From an uncultured Pelagibacteraceae bacterium (lineage in GTDB: Bacteria; Pseudomonadota; Alphaproteobacteria; Pelagibacterales; Pelagibacteraceae): 64,000 bases of DNA. The stretch lies in NCBI GenBank assembly GCA_902538445.1, contig CACBFE010000004.1:1-64000 (forward strand), in the 5' to 3' direction. Of the stretch, positions 92 to 40,248 are shown in pieces (the stretch's first letter is position 1; every line of letters begins with the position of its first letter). A program made the position numbers and the translations under genes. Under the pieces are notes generated by a model. That model did not search any database. It was not told the origin of the DNA and saw only the letters and a program-made list of their open reading frames with translations.

Positions 92-1250
92 ATCATTAAG
101 TTTAAATTTTGGACCTCAACACCCTGCAGCCCATGGTGTGTTAAGATTAATATTAGAATTAGATGGTGAGATAGTTCAAAAAGCAGATCCACATATTGGC
201 TTGTTGCATAGAGGAACGGAAAAATTAATTGAACAAAAAACTTACACTCAAGCATTACCTTATTTTGATAGATTAGATTATGTAGCACCAATGAACCAAG
301 AGCATGCTTTCGCTTTGGCAGCAGAAAAGTTACTTAATGTAGAAGTCCCAATAAGAGCGAAATATATAAGAGTTATTTTTTGTGAAATAGGAAGAATTTT
401 AAGTCATATTTTAAATGTAACGACACAAGCTTTAGATGTTGGAGCCCTTACTCCTTCATTATGGGGTTTTGAGGAAAGAGAGACTCTAATGACTTTTTAT
501 GAAAGGGCGTCCGGCTCAAGGTTACATGCAAATTATTTTAGAACAGGTGGTGTGCAAAAAGACATTCCATTAAAACTTGTTGAAGATATAGAAAAATTTT
601 GTAAGTCGTTTCCTAAAATAATTGACGATTTAGAGGGTCTACTTACTGATAACAGAATATTTAAACAACGTAATGTTGAGATTGGTATTGTATCAAAACA
701 AGAGGCATTAGATCATAGTTTTTCTGGTGTTATGTTAAGAGGTTCAGGAGTGCCCTGGGATTTAAGAAGGTCACAACCGTATGAAATCTATAAAGATTTG
801 GACTTCAAAATACCTGTTGGAAAAAATGGTGATTGTTATGATAGATACTTGTGTCGGATAGAAGAGATGAGAGAGAGTGTAAAAATTATTCTACAATGTA
901 TTGAAAAGTTACCTAAAGGACCAGTTAAATCTATTGATAATAAAATTTCTCCTCCAAATAGAGACGAAATTAAACAATCAATGGAGGCATTAATTCATCA
1001 CTTTAAATTATTTACTGAGGGATACAGAGTACCCAAAGGAGATGTTTATACTGCTGTTGAAGCTCCAAAGGGAGAATTCGGCGTATATTTAATATCGGAT
1101 GGTAGTAATAAACCTTATAGATGTAAAATTAGAGCCCCAGGTTTTTCTCACCTCCAAGCAATGGATTATTTAATTCGTGGACATATGTTAGCTGATGTGC
1201 CTGCAGTGCTTGGTTCACTAGATATCGTTTTTGGAGAGGTAGATAGATGA
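75..1250 (+). CDS. nuoD: NADH-quinone oxidoreductase subunit D (49 kDa)
   Basis: This is a 391-residue protein of the usual NuoD length. NuoD lies at the junction of the peripheral and membrane arms of complex I and forms much of the quinone site with NuoB. The N-terminal signature GPQHPAAHG (residues 13-21), followed by [12 protein letters not shown] near residue 40, is diagnostic; this histidine-containing loop lines the quinone pocket in characterised enzymes. The family-typical end [13 protein letters not shown] is intact. The ATG at 75 overlaps the nuoC tail, and the 3' end overlaps nuoE by 4 bp, so translation is probably coupled along the operon. Confidence 0.97.
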
Positions 1251-1852
1251 GTATAAAGAAAATTCATACAAGCCAACCGAAAGAATTCAAATTTTCAGGG
1301 GAAAATATGAGAAAAGTAGAGCAGATTTTAAAAAAGTATCCAGAAAAAAATAAAAAAAGTGCAGTGATGCCTTTACTTTATTTGGCACAGAGACAAAATG
1401 ATAATTGGATACCCTTAGCAGCCATGAAATTTATAGCAAAGCATCTATCAATGCCTTATATTTCAGTTTATGAAGTAGCCACCTTCTATTCCATGTATAA
1501 TCTTGAGCCTGTGGGAAAACATTTTATTCAAGTTTGCACCACAACTCCTTGCCTACTTAGAGGTGCTGATAAAATAGTAAAATTATGTAAAGAAAATATT
1601 TCTCCTAACGAGCATGAGATTTCTAAAAAAGGTAACTGCTCATGGACAGAAGTTGAGTGTCTTGGAGCATGTGTAAGTGCACCTATGATTCAAGTTAATG
1701 ATAACTACTATGAAGATTTAGACGAAAAAAGCACAAAGGAAATACTTATCTCCTTAATAAATGATAAACCTTTAAAACCAGGTTCCTATCGAGGTAGAAA
1801 AAATACTGCCCCAGAAAAAATTTCAATAAATGAGGAGGACAAACATGCTTAA
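1247..1852 (+). CDS. nuoE: NADH-quinone oxidoreductase subunit E (24 kDa, 2Fe-2S)
   Basis: This 201-residue thioredoxin-fold subunit of the complex I NADH-dehydrogenase module carries the off-path [2Fe-2S] cluster N1a. The four ligands are visible as CTTTPC (Cys97 and Cys102) and CLGAC (Cys138 and Cys142). The helical N-terminal half contains the conserved stretch [10 protein letters not shown] near residues 75-84. The short Lys-rich tail after about residue 180 is not conserved and covers the start region of nuoF. It overlaps nuoD by 4 bp (ATGA) and nuoF by 8 bp. Confidence 0.96.
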
Positions 1853-3176
1853 AAAAGAAAATAAAATTTTTAAAAATCTTTATAATGAATTTGGTTGGGA
1901 AATTGAACATTCATTAAAACGCGATGACTGGAAAGATACAAAAGATTTAATCTCTAAAGGTCGAGAGTGGATAATTAATGAAATTAAAACATCAGAGCTT
2001 AGAGGACGAGGTGGAGCAGGTTTTTCTACTGGTTTAAAATGGTCTTTTGCACCAAAAGAGATTGGTTCACGACCTCACTATTTGGTAATAAATGCAGATG
2101 AGTCTGAACCTGGGACATGTAAAGATAGAGATATTCTTAGATTTGAACCACAAAAATTAATTGAAGGATGTTTGATAGCAGGTTTCGCGGTCAATGCTCA
2201 TATTTGCTACGTATATATAAGAGGAGAATATCTTAATGAAGGAAAAAGACTTCAAGATGCTATTGATCAAGCTTACAAAAAAAATTTTTTAGGAAAAAAT
2301 GCGTGCGGTACCAATTGGGATTTTGATATTCATATTCATTATGGAGCCGGAGCGTATATTTGTGGTGAGGAAACTGCTTTACTAGAAAGTATCGAGGGTA
2401 ATAAAGGGCAACCAAGACTAAAACCGCCATTTCCAGCTTTAGTTGGCTTGTACGGTTGTCCAACTATTGTAAATAATGTTGAAACAGTCGCTGTTGTTCC
2501 CACAATTTTAAGAAGAGGTGGTAAGTGGTTTTCATCAATTGGAAAACCAAAAAACACTGGCACTAAAATTTTTTGTATTTCAGGAAATGTGAATTCCCCA
2601 TGTAATGTTGAGGAGGAAATGGGCATTCCTTTAAAAGATCTAATTGAGGAATATGCAGGTGGCGTTGTTGGAGGATGGGATAATCTTCAAGCAGTTATCC
2701 CGGGTGGTTCATCTATGCCTTTATTACCTAAAAAAATTTGCGATACAATTACAATGGATTTCGACTCTTTAATTGAAAATAAAAGCGGATTAGGAACTGC
2801 AGGTATCGTAGTAATAAATAAAGATCAAGATATCGTCGAATGCATGGCGAGAATAGCAAGGTTTTATAAACATGAGAGCTGTGGCCAATGCACTCCTTGC
2901 AGAGAGGGATCAGGTTGGATGTGGAGAATTTTAGATAGAGTCGTGAAAAGAAAAGCAACTTTTAGTGATGTGGAATTACTTTCAGACGTAACTAAACAAA
3001 TAGAGGGTCATACAATTTGTGCTTTTGGAGAAGGTTCTGCTTGGCCAGTTCAAGGTTTGTTGAGACACTTTAGAAAAGAAGTAGAAAGTCGTTGTAGAGA
3101 AGAGCCATTAATAAAGAAAAAATTAAATAATCCGTATTTAGTTGATCAGCATTTATTGGAGAATAAAAATGCCTAA
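1845..3176 (+). CDS. nuoF: NADH-quinone oxidoreductase subunit F (51 kDa, FMN/NADH binding)
   Basis: The protein has 443 residues from the ATG at 1845. I chose this start over an in-frame ATG at 1830 because GAGGAGG lies just upstream of it and the homologous region begins here. NuoF oxidises NADH, passes electrons to FMN and on to cluster N3. [14 protein letters not shown] (about residues 53-66) is the NADH/FMN glycine-rich loop, and [14 protein letters not shown] follows near residue 170. The [4Fe-4S] ligands are in ESCGQCTPC (Cys346, 349 and 352) plus Cys392 in GHTICAFG. It overlaps nuoE upstream and nuoG downstream by 8 bp each. Confidence 0.96.
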
Positions 3177-5223
3177 AATTACAATAAACGGAAAAGAAAT
3201 AGAGTTTGAAAAAGGAATGACAGTTCTACAAGCTTGTGAATTAGCTGATGTAGAAATTCCCAGATTTTGTTATCACGAAAAGCTTTCAATAGCTGGTAAT
3301 TGTAGAATGTGTTTAGTTGAAATGGAGAAATCTCCGAAACCAATCGCATCATGTGCAATGCCAGCAACAGAAGGGATGAATATAAAAACGAACACTGCAT
3401 TAGTCGAGAAAGCTAGGAAAGGTGTTATGGAATTTCTATTAGCAAATCATCCTTTAGATTGTCCGGTATGTGATCAAGGCGGTGAGTGTGATTTACAAGA
3501 TCAATCTTTATATTATGGGGTAGATAAATCTAGATTTGTTGAGAATAAAAGATTTGTAAAAGAAAAATACATGGGGCCATTGATCAAAACACAAATGACA
3601 AGATGTATACACTGCACAAGATGTGTAAGATTTGCTACTGAGGTTGCTGGCGTTCCAGAGATAGGAGCAATTGGAAGAGGTGAAAATATGGAAATCACAA
3701 CTTATTTAGAAAAATCGATGGAATCAGAGTTGTCTGCAAATGTAATTGATTTATGTCCGGTTGGAGCATTAACGTCAAAACCCTACGCTTTTGAAGCTAG
3801 ACCATGGGAACTTAAAAAAACAGAAAGTATTGATGTTACGGATGCATTAGGATCAAACATAAGAGTAGATACTTATAATTGGGAAGTAAAAAGAATTTTA
3901 CCAAGACTAAATAATGAAATTAATGAAGAATGGATTTCTGATAAAACAAGATACTCGTGTGATGGGTTGCTAAAGCAAAGATTAGACACACCATATATTA
4001 AAAAAGAAAATAAATTACAAAAATCTAGCTGGGATGAGGCCATCAATCTATTAGTTGGTAAAATACGGTCTGTAAAACCAGATGAAATCGCTGGACATAT
4101 TGGCGATATGATAAATATGGAAAATGCTCTTGCATTTAAAAAATTATTTAAAATAATAAAAAGCGACAACTTAGAATTTAGAGAAAAAAATTTTTATATT
4201 AATCCAAATGAAAAAATGAATTATATTTTTAACTCTTCAATAGCTGGTATCGAAAACTCAGATTTGATACTACTTATTGGGTCCAATCCTAGACATGAAG
4301 CTACAATCTTAAATGCAAGAATAAGAAAAACATTTGTACAAAAAAAAATTCCTATTTTTTCAATTGGTGATCCAGGCGAATTAACTTATGATTACGAAAT
4401 AATTGGCAATAGTACTGATGATATTAAAAAGATTATTAATCAAGAGCATAAATTTTCACAAAAGCTATTATCCGCCAAAAAGCCTCTTATAATAATTGGC
4501 GAGTCAGCTTTAGAGCTAAAAAGTGGGCCGTACATTTTTGAACAATTGAAAAAATTTTTAGTTGATAATAACTTTATAAATAATGATTGGAATGGATTAA
4601 ATATACTTACTCAAAACGCGTCAACTACCGGGCTAATAGATTTAAAAATTCTCAAAAATCAAAAAGAAAAAAATTCGTCTTTTTTTGACGATTTAAAAAG
4701 TAAAAAATTTAAAATTTTGTATTTGTTAGGCTCCGACAATCTTGAGTTTCAAAAAGATAATGAATTTGTTATTTACCAAGGAAGCCATGGAGATCGAGGT
4801 GCTGAAATAGCAGACATTGTTTTACCAAGTCCAGCCTTTACAGAACAAAACGGTTTGTATGAAAATTTAGAGGGTAGAGTTCAGGAAGCAAACAAAGCAT
4901 CATACCCAATTGGAGATTCTTTAGAAGACTGGAAAATTTTTAATCGTGTAATAAAAAAACTAGATAATCAAAATCAATCTTTAAATTTTGATGAACTAAG
5001 AAAAGAAGTTTTGCAAAGTATACCAAACTTTTCTGGATTAAATCAATTACCAACAAAATCAGAGATAGAAAAAAAAGAAATAGAAACAAATTTTTTTAGT
5101 GAAAAAATTTTAATAAAAAAATTAGATTATTATTTTACTAATTCTATTTCTCGATCATCCAAAACTATGAGCGAGTGTAGACAAATTCGACAAAAAGTTA
5201 AAAAAGATGGAACAAATAATTAA
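3169..5223 (+). CDS. nuoG: NADH-quinone oxidoreductase subunit G (75 kDa, iron-sulfur)
   Basis: The protein has 684 residues from the ATG at 3169, preceded by GGAG. A longer frame from 3142 would add nine residues that are not family-like. NuoG carries several electron-relay clusters of complex I. The N-terminal ferredoxin domain shows Cys34, 45, 48 and 62 for a [2Fe-2S] centre, then [14 protein letters not shown] (His94, Cys98, 101 and 107), then CIHCTRC (Cys146, 149 and 152) with Cys196 for the [4Fe-4S] centres. The remaining two thirds is a molybdopterin-oxidoreductase-like fold that in complex I is structural. The stop overlaps the nuoH start by one base. Confidence 0.96.
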
Positions 5224-6230
5224 TGCTTGAATATTTAGAAATCTTAGGTGGGGAAATCTATAAAATTTTATTTTTATTAGTCCCAATACTTGTTTCAGTA
5301 GCCATGATTGTTTGGTTGGATAGAAGAGTTTGGGGTATGGTACAAAAAAGAAAAGGACCAAATGTGGTAGGCCCGTTTGGTTTACTGCAAACATTAGCAG
5401 ATGCTTTGAAATATATTTTTAAAGAAATAATTATTCCTGCTAGCGCTAACAAGGCAGTATTTATTTTAGCTCCAATTGTTACAATGACTTTAGCTTTAGT
5501 AGCTTGGGCTGTAATTCCAATGAGTGAGGATTTAGTATTATCTGATATTAATGTGGGCGTTTTATATTTGTTTGCTGTTTCATCTCTTGGTGTGTATGGA
5601 ATTATAATGGGGGGATGGGCATCAAATTCGAAATACCCTTTTTTAGGAGCAATAAGATCTGCTGCTCAGATGGTATCGTATGAGGTATCTATAGGAATTA
5701 TAATTATAAATGTGCTTCTGTGTGTAGGCTCACTAAATTTAAAAGACATTGTGTTGGCACAAAAAGAAATTTGGTACGTAATTCCTCTGTTTCCAATGTT
5801 TATAATTTTTTTTATTTCTTCACTAGCAGAGACCAATAGACCTCCTTTTGATTTGCCAGAGGCCGAAGCCGAGCTAGTTGCAGGATATCAGACAGAATAT
5901 TCTGGAATGATGTACGCAATGTTTTGGCTTGGAGAATATGCAAATATACTTTTGATGTGTGCAATGGGATCAATCCTTTTTCTAGGCGGGTGGTTACCAG
6001 TTATTGATATTTATCCAATCAATTTAATACCTGCTCCTATTTGGATGATTTTAAAAATTTTATTCTTATTCTTTCTTTTTGCTTTAATAAAGGCGATAGT
6101 ACCAAGATATAGATATGATCAGTTGATGAGGTTGGGTTGGAAAATTTTTCTACCATTCTCCCTAATTTATTTAGTACTTACTGCAAGTTTTTTATTTTAT
6201 TTTGATAAATTACCAAAAGGGAATTTTTAA
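5223..6230 (+). CDS. nuoH: NADH-quinone oxidoreductase subunit H (membrane, quinone chamber)
   Basis: This 335-residue polytopic membrane protein has about eight hydrophobic helices. NuoH connects the peripheral and membrane arms and closes the quinone chamber. The signatures [17 protein letters not shown] (about residues 31-47) and [19 protein letters not shown] (about residues 205-223) are the most conserved NuoH loops, and the acidic cluster in the second is implicated in coupling. It sits between nuoG and nuoI with single-base overlaps (TAATG), the standard order. Confidence 0.97.
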
Positions 6231-6715
6231 TGACTATTGGAAGAATCCTTAGAACAATTTTTTTAACAGAATTTATCAGGGGACTATTAATGGCATTTAA
6301 ACAAATGTTCAAAAAATCTAAAACTGTAAATTATCCATTTGAGAAGGGGCCTATTAGCCCTCGTATGAGGGGAGAACACGCTTTAAGAAGATACCCAAAT
6401 GGTGAAGAAAGGTGTATCGCCTGCAAACTTTGTGAAGCTGTTTGCCCAGCTCAAGCTATTACAATCGAGTCAACTGAAAAGAAAGACGGAAGCAGAAAAA
6501 CCACAAGATATGATATCGATATGTTAAAATGTATTTATTGTGGTTTATGCCAAGAGTCTTGCCCAGTAGAAGCAATAGTGCAGGGTCCAAATTTTGAATT
6601 CGCAACTGAAACTAGAGAAGAACTTTATTACAATAAACAAAAACTACTAGACAATGGAGACAGATGGGAGTCCGTGTTAGCTAAAAATATTAAATTGGAT
6701 AAACCTTATAGATAA
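6230..6715 (+). CDS. nuoI: NADH-quinone oxidoreductase subunit I (two 4Fe-4S)
   Basis: This 161-residue 8Fe ferredoxin-like subunit carries clusters N6a and N6b, which bring electrons towards NuoB. Both binding motifs are intact: [12 protein letters not shown] (Cys62, 65, 68 and 72) and [12 protein letters not shown] (Cys101, 104, 107 and 111). The alphaproteobacterial stretch [20 protein letters not shown] precedes the first motif. An amphipathic N-terminal helix should lie on the membrane. The gene starts on the last base of nuoH and ends directly against nuoJ. Confidence 0.97.
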
Positions 6716-7342
6716 ATGTTAGCCCACTCTATTTTTTTTTATTTTTTTTCTATTATTGCAATTTTTTCATCACTGATGGTAATCACATCAAGAAGCACGG
6801 TTAATTCAGTTTTTTTTTTAATTCTAGATTTTATATCAGTTGGCTGTCTTTTTATAATGGTTGGAGCTGAATTTTTAGGAATGATAATATTAATTGTCTA
6901 TGTTGGTGCTGTAGCAGTATTATTTTTATTTGTCGTAATGATGCTTAATGTAGCAGAGCAAAAACAATCTTGGTTTATTGGAAAAAAATCAACGCATATA
7001 CCAATCGGATTAATTGTGAGCTTATTAATTCTCTTAGAACTGTTAGTGGTTGTTGGAGGATGGAAATATAAGGATGATCTTATGACAAGCAGTACTTTAA
7101 GTGTATCTAATATTTCAAATACGCATCAGATAGGTCTAGTTATGTACACTGACTATATATTATATTTTCAATTGGCCGGAATTATCCTTTTGCTATCAAT
7201 GATCGGAGCTATACTTTTAACATTTAGACAAAGAATAGGTGTAAAAAAACAAAGTTATTTTAATCAAATTTCTAGAAATCCATCATCATCAATTGAGCTT
7301 AAAGATGTAGAGAGCAATAAAGGGGTTAAAATTGATGATTGA
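6716..7342 (+). CDS. nuoJ: NADH-quinone oxidoreductase subunit J
   Basis: This 208-residue protein has about five hydrophobic helices. NuoJ is a membrane subunit of the proton-translocating arm. The third helix contains [20 protein letters not shown] (about residues 54-73), the conserved region with a pi-bulge involved in coupling. The C-terminal 35 residues are polar and variable. The ATG directly abuts the nuoI stop, with no spacer. The 3' end overlaps the nuoK start by 8 bp. Confidence 0.95.
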
Positions 7343-7646
7343 AATTGGACTAGGTCATTATTTATCTCTAGGTGCAATAATATTTTTTCTTGGAGTAATT
7401 GGCATTTTTTTAAATAGAAAAAACGTAATAGTAATATTGATGTCTATTGAATTAATATTGTTATCAGTAAACATAAATCTAATATCATTCTCAATTTTCT
7501 CTGGAGATATAGTTGGCCAAATATTCACAATGTTAATTTTGACAGTGGCTGCAGCAGAAGCAGCAATAGGATTAGCAATAATTGTTATTTATTATAGAAA
7601 TAGAGGTTCTATTAGAGTTGAAGATATCCATGGAATGAGAGGATAA
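7335..7646 (+). CDS. nuoK: NADH-quinone oxidoreductase subunit K
   Basis: The protein has 103 residues from the ATG at 7335; an in-frame TTG one codon upstream is a less likely start. NuoK is a three-helix membrane subunit homologous to MrpC and is part of the proton path. Helix two contains the key glutamate in [14 protein letters not shown] (about residues 35-48), and a second conserved glutamate lies in [11 protein letters not shown] near residue 70. Length and hydrophobic pattern match the family. It starts inside nuoJ and abuts nuoL. Confidence 0.95.
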
Positions 7647-36687: not shown

Positions 36688-37356
36688 ATGGATCTTATTA
36701 CAGTAATAATAATAGGTGTGGTAGTTGCAGCTACGGGTGTAATTAATCCACAAGCTAAAGATCCAGAAGAAGTAGCTAAAGCCCCTGAAACACAGGTTAT
36801 AACTCCAGAAGTTAAAGAACCAGAACCGGAGCCAGAACCTGAGCCAGAACCAGAACCAGAACCAGAACCGGAGCCAGCAAAAGAGCCAGAACCTGAGCCA
36901 GAACCAGAACCGGAGCCTCAAAAAGAAGAACCAAAAGAAGAAGTAAACGCTGAACCAACTCAGGAACAAGACGCAAAACCTGAAGAGGAAGAGGTTCAAC
37001 CAGTAACAGAAGAAACTACTGAAGCCTCAGAGGAAAAAGGTTTAAGTATGGTGAACATACTTCTATATATATTAGGAGCAATTGCAGTAATCGCAGCTGG
37101 AATATATTTCTTCATGAGAAGAGACCCTACGCCAAAAAGTGCTGCTGACATAGCTAGAGCTCAGTCACAACAAGAGCCTACTCCTGAACCTCAAGAGGAA
37201 CCAGCCCAAGAAGAAACATATTCAGAGCCTCAGTCTCAACCAGAACCTGAACAACCAGCTCAAGAAGAAACACCGACAGAAGCTAATGAGGAAGAGTCTC
37301 AATCAGAAAATAATGACCAATCATCCAATAAAGATGATGAGAATAACAATAGATAA
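36688..37356 (+). CDS. Pro-Glu repeat membrane protein of unknown function
   Basis: The protein has 222 residues. An N-terminal hydrophobic segment (about 3-19) is followed by an extended acidic region with a continuous EP repeat (about residues 44-78, broken once by AKE), then Glu/Thr/Gln-rich sequence to residue 117. A second hydrophobic helix (121-143) ends in RR, and an acidic, Gln-, Pro- and Ser-rich tail follows to residue 222. The RR after the second helix suggests the tail is cytoplasmic and the EP repeat is periplasmic. EP repeats can span the periplasm as stiff rods, as in TonB-like proteins, but no known domain is recognisable. The ATG follows a hairpin-containing spacer. It converges on the nuclease gene 4 bp away. 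Confidence 0.75.
   Translation: MDLITVIIIGVVVAATGVINPQAKDPEEVAKAPETQVITPEVKEPEPEPEPEPEPEPEPEPEPAKEPEPEPEPEPEPQKEEPKEEVNAEPTQEQDAKPEEEEVQPVTEETTEASEEKGLSMVNILLYILGAIAVIAAGIYFFMRRDPTPKSAADIARAQSQQEPTPEPQEEPAQEETYSEPQSQPEPEQPAQEETPTEANEEESQSENNDQSSNKDDENNNR
36817..36917 (+). repeat. Imperfect 6-bp tandem repeat (GAACCA/GAGCCA type)
   Basis: About 17 copies of a hexanucleotide of the form GA(A/G)CC(A/G/T) run without break of frame, with one interruption (GCAAAAGAGCCA). It encodes the Glu-Pro repeat of the membrane protein. Synonymous variation between copies suggests that the Glu-Pro pattern is under selection at the protein level, though slipped-strand change in copy number is possible. Confidence 0.85.
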
Positions 37357-37360
37357 TTAA

Positions 37361-38128
37361 CTAAAATTTTTTTCCACCTTCTAGATAAGCACACTTCTCA
37401 CAAGTTTTTTCAATTTTAGGAGGCTCATCAAGATTTAAAACATTTTTCATTTCAATTAACCTTTCTTCAATCCACGAAGTGTCTACACGGTATGGTATTA
37501 ATGTTGTTTTGAAATCTATTTTATTATCAAATTTATCATTTGATTTTTCTCCATTACAAACATAAAAAAATGTTTGATCCGAAACATCAAAATTCATTTT
37601 TCTTAAAATATGTACATATATATCCATTTGTAATTTATAACTTAGATGCCATTCAGCATCGAGATAGGAGGATACTGTTACAGGATAAGTAGAGGATTGA
37701 GCTTTATAATCTACAACAACTATCTTCTTTTCATTTAAATCAAACCAAAGATCATCAATTCCTCCGTGAATGATTAGATTAGTTTTTTCATCTAAATATG
37801 AAATTCCACCTTTTAAAGAATTTCTCCATGTATCTAAATCTTTATGCTGATAAGGAACAAAATTTAGATTATGTTTAATCATAATCGGATGAGGTTTTTG
37901 CTCTTTTCTATATTGATCAAACTCTTTTTTTAATAACTCATCTACAGCAACATTTAGAGCCCATCCAGGCATAGAAGGTTCTTTTAGGCCCTTAACTCGA
38001 TCTAGATAAAAACAACGTTTACAATTAAGAAAATTGAAAAATTTAGACCTACTTATTTTAAAAGGGGAGTTTGATTTTTTATCGTAAATGGATGTTTTTC
38101 TCGTTCTGAAAGATACAGCGTCTTTCAT
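37361..38128 (-). CDS. RecB-family PD-(D/E)XK nuclease with two CxxC pairs
   Basis: This 255-residue protein carries the RecB nuclease core: GGIDDLW (about 122-128), VVDYKAQ (138-144, catalytic Asp140 and Lys142) and QMDIY (167-171). Four cysteines are placed as CKRC (36-39) and CEKC (243-246), one pair before and one after the core, as in Cas4, AddB and Dna2 nucleases, where they bind a [4Fe-4S] cluster. No helicase or Cas genes are near. It starts one base from the gltX stop and likely shares its transcript, which may also carry lexA. The role is unknown; DNA repair or processing is inference from the family. Confidence 0.82.
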   Translation of the reverse strand: MKDAVSFRTRKTSIYDKKSNSPFKISRSKFFNFLNCKRCFYLDRVKGLKEPSMPGWALNVAVDELLKKEFDQYRKEQKPHPIMIKHNLNFVPYQHKDLDTWRNSLKGGISYLDEKTNLIIHGGIDDLWFDLNEKKIVVVDYKAQSSTYPVTVSSYLDAEWHLSYKLQMDIYVHILRKMNFDVSDQTFFYVCNGEKSNDKFDNKIDFKTTLIPYRVDTSWIEERLIEMKNVLNLDEPPKIEKTCEKCAYLEGGKKF

Positions 38129-39517
38129 TTAAATTTGTTTAAGCCTTTTAAGTACTTCGGTTTTATCTAAAGATAAAATAACATCATATAGACCTGGCCC
38201 AAATCTTGAGCCCACTAGCGCTATTCTTAGAGGCTGACCCACACCTTTAAAATTTGTCTTATGTTTATTTATTAAGGATTTAATTATAGGTTCTAAAACT
38301 TCTCTAGATAAAGAGGATAGTTTTCCATATTCACTAATAAAGTCATTAATTACCTTTTTTGATAAATCATCAATTAATTTTTTATCATCTGCACCAATCT
38401 CAATTTTATCATTAATTATATATTGAGCGTTATTCCAAATATCCTCTAGAGTTTTTGCTTTATTCTTTAAAAAACTCATTGATTTTAAAAGAACATGCTC
38501 TTTTGTTTGATCAATAGATTTTTTGTATTTAGAAACATATTCTTTGAAGAAATAAAAAAGATCTTTTTCATCTATTGTCTTTATGTATGTTTCATTTATT
38601 GAATAAATCCTATTTATATCAAGTTTTGAAGGTGATTTACCGACGCCACTTAAATCAAATAAATCAATGCTTTCTTGCTTAGTAAAAATCTCTTTATCTT
38701 TGTAAGACCATCCTAATCTTAATAAATAATTCCTTAAGGCATCTGAAATAATTCCAATTTTAACATAATCTTCAAGAGTAGATGCATTATCTCTTTTAGA
38801 TAATTTTTTTCCTTGTTCACTATGAATTAATGGAATATGAGCAAAGTTTGGCACATCCCAACCCATTGCGTCATAGATTTGTTTTTGTTTAAAAGAATTA
38901 ATCATATGATCATCTCCTCTAATTACATGGGTTATTTTCATCTCGTGATCATCAACTGTCGCTGATAATTGATATGTTGGTGATTTATCTTTTCTTATTA
39001 TTACAAAATCTTCAATTGTAGAATTTGATATATTTCTTTGTCCTTGAACTAAATCATTTATAATCGTATTTCCTGAAATTTTACTCTTAAATCTAATTAC
39101 CGGTTTAACACCATCTGGGATTTTAAGGTCTTTAGGATCTCTCCATTTTCTATTATAAACATAAGGTATACCTTGTTTTTTACACTTCTCTTTTTGTTCA
39201 TTTATTTCTTCTTCAGAACAGTAACATTCATAAGCAAAACCTTTTTTAATAAGCTCTTCAGCAACCGCAACATGTTTATTAATGTTTTTTGATTGAATGT
39301 ATTCTTCACCATCATGTTCAATACCAAGCCAAGATAATGAAGAAATAATTTGTTTTTTAAATTCATCTTTTGATCGTTCTTTGTCTGTATCTTCAATTCT
39401 TAAAAAATATTTGCCTTTATTTTTTTTAGCCAAAAGCCAATTAAATAAAGCTGTTCGAACACCACCAATATGAAGAGGCCCAGTAGGAGAGGGCGCAAAC
39501 CTACAATTAAAAGACAT
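38129..39517 (-). CDS. gltX: Glutamyl-tRNA synthetase
   Basis: This 462-residue class I synthetase charges tRNA-Glu and feeds both translation and tetrapyrrole synthesis. The HIGH-type motif is PSPTGPLHIGG (9-19) and the KMSKS-type motif is KLSKR (238-242), with the usual anticodon-binding domain to the end. It lies between lexA and the nuclease gene, 19 bp downstream of lexA. The lexA-gltX neighbourhood is common in Alphaproteobacteria, usually with a comEC gene between; none is here. Confidence 0.97.
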   Translation of the reverse strand: MSFNCRFAPSPTGPLHIGGVRTALFNWLLAKKNKGKYFLRIEDTDKERSKDEFKKQIISSLSWLGIEHDGEEYIQSKNINKHVAVAEELIKKGFAYECYCSEEEINEQKEKCKKQGIPYVYNRKWRDPKDLKIPDGVKPVIRFKSKISGNTIINDLVQGQRNISNSTIEDFVIIRKDKSPTYQLSATVDDHEMKITHVIRGDDHMINSFKQKQIYDAMGWDVPNFAHIPLIHSEQGKKLSKRDNASTLEDYVKIGIISDALRNYLLRLGWSYKDKEIFTKQESIDLFDLSGVGKSPSKLDINRIYSINETYIKTIDEKDLFYFFKEYVSKYKKSIDQTKEHVLLKSMSFLKNKAKTLEDIWNNAQYIINDKIEIGADDKKLIDDLSKKVINDFISEYGKLSSLSREVLEPIIKSLINKHKTNFKGVGQPLRIALVGSRFGPGLYDVILSLDKTEVLKRLKQI

Positions 39518-39536: not shown

Positions 39537-40211
39537 TTAGTGAAAGTTTCTATACAAAGAAACAAGTTTACCTTGAATTTTTATTCTATTAGCAGCGTAG
39601 ATTTTTGTACCGTAGTTTCTATTTGCAGCTTCTAGAGCAATAGTGTTTCCTTTTTTTCTAACTCTTTTTAAAGTTGCTTCCTGGTCATCAATTAAAACGA
39701 CTGCAATCTGACCATTATCTACATTTGAAGTTTTCTTAACAATTACTGTATCACCATCATTGATGCCAGCTTCAATCATTGAGTCACCTTTTACTTTTAG
39801 TCCGTAATGCTCACCATTATTTTGTAAATCTTCAGGTAAAGCCACTCTATCAACTTCTTGTTGAATTGCTTCTATGGGAGTTCCTGCTGCAATACTTCCC
39901 AAAACTGATACATCAGTTGATTTTGTTTTTTCTTTATCTAATCCACCTTTAATAACGCTTGGTGTGAAAGTATTAAAAATATCATTAGCACTTGCATTTT
40001 CTGGCAATTTAACAACCTCTAAAGCTCTTGCTTTATGAGCTAATCTTTTTACAAATCCTCGCTCTTCTAAAGCTGAAATTAATCTATGAATTCCTGATTT
40101 CGACTTAAGGTTGAGTGAATTTTTCATCTCTTCATATGAAGGAGAAATACCAGAAGATCTAATCTTCTTATTAATGAATATTAGTAAGTTTTTTTGTTTT
40201 TTTGTAAGCAT
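39537..40211 (-). CDS. lexA: LexA repressor (SOS regulator)
   Basis: The protein has 224 residues from the ATG at 40211. An in-frame ATG at 40229 is less likely because GAGG sits 8 bp before the inner start and homology starts with MLTKKQ. A winged-helix DNA-binding domain (about 1-70) is followed by the S24 autoprotease domain. The cleavage site is Ala109-Gly110 in SIAAGTP, and the catalytic dyad is Ser144 (GDSM) and Lys182 (TLKRV). A LexA box of the alphaproteobacterial type lies just upstream, so it autoregulates. It follows trpC in the same direction. Confidence 0.96.
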   Translation of the reverse strand: MLTKKQKNLLIFINKKIRSSGISPSYEEMKNSLNLKSKSGIHRLISALEERGFVKRLAHKARALEVVKLPENASANDIFNTFTPSVIKGGLDKEKTKSTDVSVLGSIAAGTPIEAIQQEVDRVALPEDLQNNGEHYGLKVKGDSMIEAGINDGDTVIVKKTSNVDNGQIAVVLIDDQEATLKRVRKKGNTIALEAANRNYGTKIYAANRIKIQGKLVSLYRNFH

Positions 40212-40233
40212 AGAACAAACCTCGTACATCTAT

Positions 40234-40248
40234 GTTCTATAAAAGTTC
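40234..40248 (-). promoter_or_regulatory. LexA operator (SOS box) upstream of lexA
   Basis: GTTC-TATAAAA-GTTC occupies exactly 15 bases and matches the alphaproteobacterial LexA consensus GTTCN7GTTC (on the minus strand GAACN7GAAC). It is 23 bp from the lexA start codon. It overlaps a candidate minus-strand -10 element (TATAGA, 40241-40236) whose -35 (TTGTAA) is at 40262-40257, so LexA bound here would block the promoter. Confidence 0.85.

What the first reader, a model, noticed from the sequence alone, without database searches (positions are those of the whole stretch)
37361..38128. Orphan RecB-like nuclease with Cas4-style cysteines on the lexA transcript
The catalytic GGIDDLW, VVDYKAQ and QxxxY motifs are intact and two CxxC pairs flank the core, as in iron-sulfur nucleases of the Cas4/AddB/Dna2 type. 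No helicase, Cas gene or phage gene is near. It follows gltX by zero bases and lies in line with lexA, whose promoter has a LexA box, so it may be damage-induced. A small single-domain repair nuclease would be notable in a genome this reduced.
Basis: partly seen in the sequence, partly recalled or inferred. Interest (0 to 1): 0.55.

Follow-up and report, generated by a model that had tools for sequence, protein, structure and literature searches.

The report
Solo Cas4-like nuclease in SAR11
This ocean bacterium carries a small stand-alone DNA-cutting enzyme, related to the CRISPR helper Cas4, as the last gene after its DNA-damage regulator; in sister genomes the same spot is repeatedly swapped for anti-virus gene sets that usually bring such an enzyme of their own, so it is probably a defence nuclease that settled under stress control.

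Summary
In detail: 37361-38128 (-) encodes a 255-aa single-domain PD-(D/E)XK nuclease, zero bases after gltX in a trpC-lexA-gltX-nuclease row, with an exact LexA box before lexA. The model (pLDDT 92) matches Cas4, RecE and AdnA nucleases. The cysteines are not Cas4-style: Cas4 has 1+3 (C...CxxCx5C), this family 2+2 (CxxC...CxxC). It is the genome's only PDDEXK_1 protein; no RecB/AddA-type helicase was found. New here: the gltX 3' junction is a defence hotspot in this SAR11 genus. Of 115 junctions, 79 hold this nuclease after gltX, 16 a second 2+2-Cys subfamily in the same place, 10 a nuclease on the other strand (6 with methylase/restriction genes), 3 a DUF2779 protein, 7 none of these (one holds umuDC). 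Operon-linked copies form one clade, evolve as slowly as gltX and track it. Relatives elsewhere often sit beside restriction-modification or CBASS genes. Best reading: a solo Cas4-like DNA-end nuclease of defence origin, domesticated behind lexA-gltX. Damage induction, metal cluster and activity are inferred, not shown. Solo Cas4-like proteins are known; this subfamily, cysteine set and locus are a new variant.

The parts
37361..38128 (-). nuclease gene NUC1, 255 aa, PDDEXK_1 / Cas4-like; catalytic D126 (37751-37753), D140 (37709-37711), K142 (37703-37705), Q167, Y171
38012..38023 (-). N-terminal CxxC (C36-K-R-C39) at the start of the second helix
   Evidence: helix limits; conserved in 30 of 30
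37391..37402 (-). C-terminal CxxC (C243-E-K-C246) at the start of the last helix; no third Cys at +6 as in Cas4
38129..39517 (-). gltX, directly upstream (gap 0); its 3' end is the hotspot junction
39537..40229 (-). lexA (likely true start 40211, MLTKKQKN; inferred from the reading frame)
40234..40248 (.). exact alphaproteobacterial-type LexA box GTTC-N7-GTTC (motif recalled); a one-mismatch copy follows at 40213-40227
36688..37356 (+). orf222, convergent neighbour 4 bp away, membrane anchor plus Pro-Glu repeats; usual far boundary of the junction

Best explanation
A solo Cas4/AdnA-type exonuclease of defence-island origin, domesticated as third gene of a lexA-gltX row in one SAR11 genus. It most likely binds free DNA ends and degrades or trims them, using the D126/D140/K142 metal site, with the two CxxC pairs joining the first and last helices round an Fe-S cluster (or zinc). 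Its main use is probably against incoming DNA (phage DNA, restriction fragments), with the cell's own broken ends as a possible second substrate, in cells that lack RecBCD/AddAB. Placed behind lexA-gltX it would be made at a basal level and raised when LexA is cleaved. Shown by sequence: family, conserved active site, cysteine set, gene order, LexA box, hotspot with exchange of nucleases and restriction genes, single arrival and vertical descent of the operon-linked form. Inferred: activity, cluster, substrate, co-transcription, induction, defence role.
For: PDDEXK_1 above cut-off; Cas4 models of PADLOC, best E 1.5e-10 over residues 25-249; model pLDDT 92 matching RecE Z 11.3, Cas4 Z 11.0, AdnA Z 11.0, SSO0001 Z 10.6. 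79 of 115 gltX junctions carry it codirectionally, 16 the second subfamily, 10 a nuclease on the other strand, 6 of those with methylase/restriction genes. The two subfamilies are homologous (hhalign 98.9%, E 1e-17, all four Cys aligned). Relatives next to type III-like Mod/Res (L146, L140), SMODS+SLATT (L139), ResIII+Mrr (L135). Operon-linked NUC1 one clade, 100/98; dN/dS 0.059 vs gltX 0.053. Only PDDEXK_1 match per genome in 11 of 12 genus members tested. LexA box 74 of 74.
Against: Purifying selection and vertical descent as for a housekeeping gene do not look like an arms-race gene. In most genomes it stands alone, and the window's genome has no Dcm match, so it is no mere accessory of a Dcm system. 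Four complete same-family genomes of two other genera have no PDDEXK_1 protein at all, so the job is not essential for SAR11. 3 of 30 members lack C246 and 2 lack catalytic D140. gltX is a housekeeping gene, so SOS control of the third gene may be weak. Junction cargo has no tested anti-phage activity.
Confidence: 0.5

Rival explanations
1. A housekeeping repair nuclease: an SOS-linked stand-in for the missing RecBCD/AddAB nuclease that resects or trims broken chromosomal ends together with the single UvrD helicase.
For: Only PDDEXK_1 protein in the genome; one UvrD-type helicase of 681-742 aa and none longer in 16 of 16 genomes; RecBCD reported absent from SAR11 Ic and IIa.A (PMC12374537, passage); strong purifying selection; umuDC takes the slot in one genome; LexA box conserved.
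Against: Four complete genomes of sister genera lack it and any PDDEXK_1 protein; the slot is exchanged for restriction cassettes; relatives outside SAR11 are patchy, 12 of 384 other class members with a stand-alone copy, and often in defence contexts.
Confidence: 0.27
2. A passenger of a mobile cassette that integrates or recombines at the gltX 3' end; the nuclease serves the movement or upkeep of the element rather than the cell.
For: Eight IMG/VR contigs carry close relatives; a CII-like regulator family sits beside some copies; the junction state needs at least 19 changes on a gltX tree of 61 rows, fewer if only starred branches are trusted.
Against: No integrase was recognised in the junction cassettes read; 0 of 50,697 phage records and 1 of 72,556 plasmid records match; the operon-linked copies descend vertically under strong selection.
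Confidence: 0.13
3. A DNA-binding or structural protein whose CxxC pairs hold zinc and whose nuclease activity is weak or lost.
For: Members L153 and L154 lack the catalytic aspartate yet keep all four Cys, next to an ATP-dependent ligase in L154.
Against: The window copy and 28 of 30 members keep D126/D140/K142/Q167/Y171.
Confidence: 0.06

Closest known systems
Cas4-like proteins of pfam12705 and solo-Cas4 (Hudaiberdiev et al. 2017, PMC5704561)
   Same: single-domain PD-(D/E)XK nuclease outside CRISPR loci, in small-genome environmental microbes, next to type III restriction-modification or Dcm genes, selection pressure near the genomic median (passages read)
   Different: not fused to UvrD, which that paper gives as the largest pfam12705 branch; 2+2 cysteines; tied to lexA-gltX; Pelagibacter and Alphaproteobacteria have zero mentions in its main text
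CRISPR Cas4 (TIGR00372, PF01930)
   Same: fold and motifs; C36, C243 and C246 fall on three of Cas4's four cluster Cys in a profile alignment
   Different: below both curated cut-offs; lacks the last Cas4 Cys and has C39 instead; no cas genes
AddAB / AdnAB / RecBCD nuclease domains
   Same: fold (AdnA Z 11.0, AddB Z 8.8)
   Different: no helicase domain or partner; such helicase-nucleases not found in these genomes
Cas4-like nuclease of Synechococcus elongatus (PMC10653904, passages)
   Same: solo Cas4-like gene whose loss raised transfer or maintenance of an RSF1010 plasmid
   Different: other lineage and context; sequence not compared here

Membership tests
PDDEXK_1 superfamily (PF12705) | score above curated cut-off | tested here: met
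   35.4 vs 22 bits
PDDEXK_1 superfamily (PF12705) | catalytic D, D, K plus QxxxY | tested here: met
   window copy intact; 28 of 30 members fully intact
Cas4 (TIGR00372 / PF01930) | curated score cut-offs | tested here: not met
   26.7 vs 65 bits; 17.4 vs 22.7 bits
Cas4 (TIGR00372 / PF01930) | Fe-S Cys pattern C ... C-x2-C-x5-C | tested here: not met
   last Cys absent in 30 of 30, extra Cys at +3 of the first in 30 of 30; 15 of 15 Cas4 segments have the pattern
Cas4 (TIGR00372 / PF01930) | Cas4 fold | tested here: met
   VIA Z 11.0, rmsd 4.3, 182 aligned, vs Cas4 of 7mi4
Cas4 (TIGR00372 / PF01930) | CRISPR-cas neighbours (CAS-Cas4 only) | tested here: not met
   no cas gene recognised among the window ORFs (read by eye); junction survey
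Cas4 (TIGR00372 / PF01930) | bound [4Fe-4S] or [2Fe-2S] cluster | not testable with these tools
   needs protein
AddAB / RecBCD | UvrD-type helicase fused to or encoded beside the nuclease | tested here: not met
   255-aa protein; one UvrD-type match per genome, 681-742 aa, far from the locus in the window's genome (G000:C5)
LexA regulon | LexA box at the operon promoter | tested here: met
   exact box, 74 of 74; genome-wide the motif is not enriched, 6 exact hits vs 14 for the reversed control
LexA regulon | induction by DNA damage | not testable with these tools
   needs RNA data
Defence-island gene | neighbourhood exchanged with defence genes | tested here: met
   methylase/restriction or AIPR/Z1 genes at 10 of 115 junctions (some of these genes by similarity of the printed starts only)
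Defence-island gene | anti-phage activity | not testable with these tools
   needs experiment

The most novel reading that the evidence does not exclude
In RecBCD-less SAR11, two distinct 2+2-cysteine Cas4-like subfamilies were recruited to the same place behind lexA-gltX and form an SOS-wired innate defence: a damage- or infection-induced solo exonuclease that destroys free DNA ends, doing with one 255-aa protein part of what RecBCD does elsewhere, and being traded in place against restriction cassettes that bring their own version.
Probability: 0.25. Interest if true: 0.78.

Novelty: new variant of a known kind. Interest (0 to 1): 0.55.

Why it matters
SAR11 are among the most abundant cells in the sea, reported to lack RecBCD (PMC12374537), and little defence machinery was found described for them in the searches made. 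What solo Cas4-like nucleases do was called open by the 2017 survey. A fixed, conserved solo copy in a cell with no other PDDEXK_1 nuclease, at a site where natural swaps between nuclease alone, nuclease plus restriction system and no nuclease occur among sister genomes, is a natural experiment. It also predicts a 2+2 ligand set for a Cas4-type metal site that can be checked on a small protein.

Tried and rejected
Rejected: chance ORF; Cas4 membership in the strict sense; a fixed partner gene (neighbours vary); phage gene (0 of 50,697 phage records; the IMG/VR hits are short contigs, several with restriction genes, so the label 'viral' is not proof).

Led nowhere: sequence profiles against the PDB, 0 hits and 9 chance hits; a plain protein scan of IMG/VR found none; phylum-wide search found only the window's own copy, 1 of 398; literature for lexA-gltX operons, ACE1 and Pelagibacter with Cas4 gave nothing on this locus. 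Genome-wide the LexA motif is not enriched, although 2 of its 6 exact hits lie at lexA and umuDC. PMC4285135 had no bearing. A profile comparison through the tool failed, a first script gave empty output, a second worked. The model coordinates are not readable here, so the meeting of the four Cys is inferred from helix positions and the profile alignment with Cas4, not measured.

Full report
What is there. The window comes from a SAR11-type genome (0.91 Mb in 33 contigs, 81% complete); the nearest named record with the gene is Candidatus Pelagibacter ubique HIMB058 at 96% identity, which I recall as subclade II. On the minus strand the order is trpC, lexA, gltX, nuclease; the nuclease ORF 37361-38128 begins in the base after the gltX stop. 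In 79 loci with both genes complete the gap from gltX is 0 in 47, -1 in 28, -4 in 2 and 3 in 2, and in 75 loci the lexA-gltX gap is 18 or 19 bp: no room for a promoter or terminator between them, so read-through and translational coupling are likely (inference).

What kind of protein. PF12705 35.4 bits against a cut-off of 22; Cas4 models below cut-off, though PADLOC Cas4 models match 28 of 31 family members at E 0.01. A model from 30 family sequences has mean pLDDT 92. Its best structural relatives are tied: RecE (Z 11.3, rmsd 5.1, 185 aligned), Cas4 of a Cas4/Cas1/Cas2 complex (Z 11.0, rmsd 4.3, 182 aligned), AdnA (Z 11.0, rmsd 4.0, 190 aligned), then SSO0001 Cas4 (Z 10.6). Foldseek alone gave weak matches, best E 1.6e-4 to a putative exonuclease.

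Cysteines. C36, C39 and C243 are in 30 of 30 members and C246 in 27 of 30; the three exceptions (L150-L152) have Gly or Tyr. A profile alignment with 15 Cas4 segments from other Alphaproteobacteria puts C36 on Cas4's N-terminal Cys and C243/C246 on the first two of its C-terminal three; Cas4's last Cys has no counterpart (0 of 30) and C39 is extra. That alignment is weak as homology evidence (probability 32-39%), so it is used for register only, along with the CxR-(hydrophobic)-L and CxxC anchors. C39 lies one helix turn from C36 and both pairs open helices, so one shared metal site is geometrically plausible. The second subfamily has the same 2+2 set in 9 of 9 aligned members and the same helix layout in its own model (pLDDT 87.9; best matches Cas4 Z 13.7, AdnA 13.1).

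Where it occurs. 30 of 61 relatives, 80 kept of 91 loci in named genomes, all titled Pelagibacteraceae, Pelagibacterales or Pelagibacter. In the class, 16 of 385 genomes match, one of them the window's own and three inside ORFs of 833-1092 aa, leaving 12 others with a stand-alone copy. In the phylum sample, 1 of 398, the own genome. Plasmids 1 of 72,556 records, phages 0 of 50,697. IMG/VR, 8 contigs with up to 64% identity.

The junction. gltX was found in 116 of 151 genomes of the genus; 115 rows hold its 3' end. Codirectional NUC1 within 100 bp in 79; nine more with a nuclease-like hit on the other strand within 5.2 kb; 27 without a profile hit. Reading those 27 (L174, L175, L181-L205): 16 have the second subfamily directly after gltX, one (G897) a divergent copy on the other strand, three a DUF2779 protein (one member tested in Pfam; that DUF2779 proteins are nuclease-like is recalled), and seven none of these: G858 (cytosine methylase, then contig end), G829 (cytosine methylase, AIPR, Z1, HATPase), G830 (umuDC and an ATP-grasp protein), G871 and G878 (ATP-grasp homologue), G828 and G024 (lpxB directly after gltX). 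Totals 79+16+3 (NUC1 opposite: G007, G809, G861)+7 (second subfamily opposite)+3+7=115. Six of the ten opposite-strand cases carry methylase or restriction genes: G861 Dcm+DUF4420+Z1, G863 MT-A70+BglII-type endonuclease+ResIII helicase+HNH, G809 N6_N4_Mtase+SNF2 helicase, G013 ResIII helicase, with G821 and G910 judged by likeness of the printed starts. Four complete genomes of two sister genera keep lexA-gltX next to lpxB or a citrate-synthase-like gene with no nuclease. So lexA-gltX is older than the insertions.

History. In a tree of 50 nucleases the codirectional NUC1 copies form one clade (100/98, 23 rows), next to IMG/VR contigs L135-L137 and island copy L215; G861's copy groups with copies from other orders, while G007 and G809 sit on long branches whose joint place is unsure. 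On a gltX tree of 61 rows the junction state needs at least 19 changes among 8 states (shuffled mean 34.6); starred branches alone force fewer, and many inner branches are weak. Within the operon-linked group NUC distances follow gltX distances (r 0.80, as for lexA 0.81 and trpC 0.78) and median dN/dS is 0.059, against 0.053 gltX, 0.026 lexA, 0.127 trpC. Near-saturated dS (median about 0.9) makes these ratios rough.

Repair background. PF12705 has a single match in the own genome and in 11 of 12 other genus members tested, always the gltX neighbour, and none in 4 sister-genus genomes. One UvrD-type helicase per genome in 16 of 16, 681-742 aa, so no AddA/RecB-sized protein. PMC12374537 states that RecBCD is absent from SAR11 Ic and IIa.A (passage). 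The own genome has no C5 methylase match; other methylase families were not searched there.

SOS. The LexA box is exact, unique in the window as an exact match and kept in 74 of 74 lexA upstream regions. A second exact box in the genome lies just upstream of umuDC. In G830 umuDC itself sits behind lexA-gltX. All this is sequence evidence; induction is not shown, and the motif is not enriched genome-wide (6 vs 14 for the reversed control).

Relatives elsewhere. Pfam-tested neighbours: Mod/Res pairs with a TnsA-like domain in L146 and L140, ResIII/Mrr in L135, SNF2 helicase in L137, SMODS plus SLATT_4 in L139. L154 is followed by an ATP-dependent ligase and, like L153, has Ile for D140. Others (L144, L145, L150-L152) have no defence gene that I recognised beside them.

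Comparison. The 2017 Cas4 survey (PMC5704561, passages) describes solo-Cas4 in small-genome environmental microbes, pfam12705 Cas4-like proteins with type III restriction-modification and Dcm genes, and calls their functions uncharacterised. That is the same kind. I found no paper on this locus or cysteine set with the searches (open-licence PMC full text only). A plasmid-interference effect of a Cas4-like nuclease in Synechococcus elongatus (PMC10653904, passages) supports a role against incoming DNA by analogy.

Judgement. Works like a Cas4/RecB-type end nuclease (likely); member of PDDEXK_1 (tested, met); Cas4 proper (tested, two features not met). Defence nuclease domesticated under lexA-gltX: about even odds; repair stand-in for RecBCD: about one in four.

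Noticed in passing
locus L114 (own genome G000:C8, about 6061-7600): umuDC with an exact GTTC-N7-GTTC box just upstream of umuD, the second exact LexA box at an SOS gene of this genome.
   Followed up: partly
36688-37356 (+): orf222: membrane-anchored protein with long Pro-Glu repeats, 4 bp convergent with the nuclease; it is the next gene in 69 of 80 loci. Function unknown.
   Followed up: no
L158, L181, L183, L185, L206, L207, L211, L212: A small ORF of 61-82 aa (TDFYLL..SEGDLFVTDYIK) sits beside the nuclease in island forms of the junction; no PHROG match for one copy.
   Followed up: partly
L135, L136, L156, L160, L215: A 151-167 aa ORF, weakly CII-like (phrog_101 E 0.0069 in L135; phrog_38866 E 2.9e-10 in L156), lies next to or near nucleases of both subfamilies.
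   Followed up: partly
L153:7771-8490, L154:7355-8092, L155:7574-8311: Family copies in which the catalytic aspartate is Ile (L153, L154; L155 by its printed sequence), followed by an ATP-dependent DNA ligase (tested in L154): a possibly dead nuclease paired with a ligase.
   Followed up: partly
L138 (IMG/VR contig) 1023-3305: Order phosphoesterase-like ORF, nuclease, SRAP/YedK-like ORF (names by eye).
   Followed up: no
L195 (G830): umuD-umuC plus an ATP-grasp gene occupy the slot after lexA-gltX where the nuclease sits in other genomes.
   Followed up: partly
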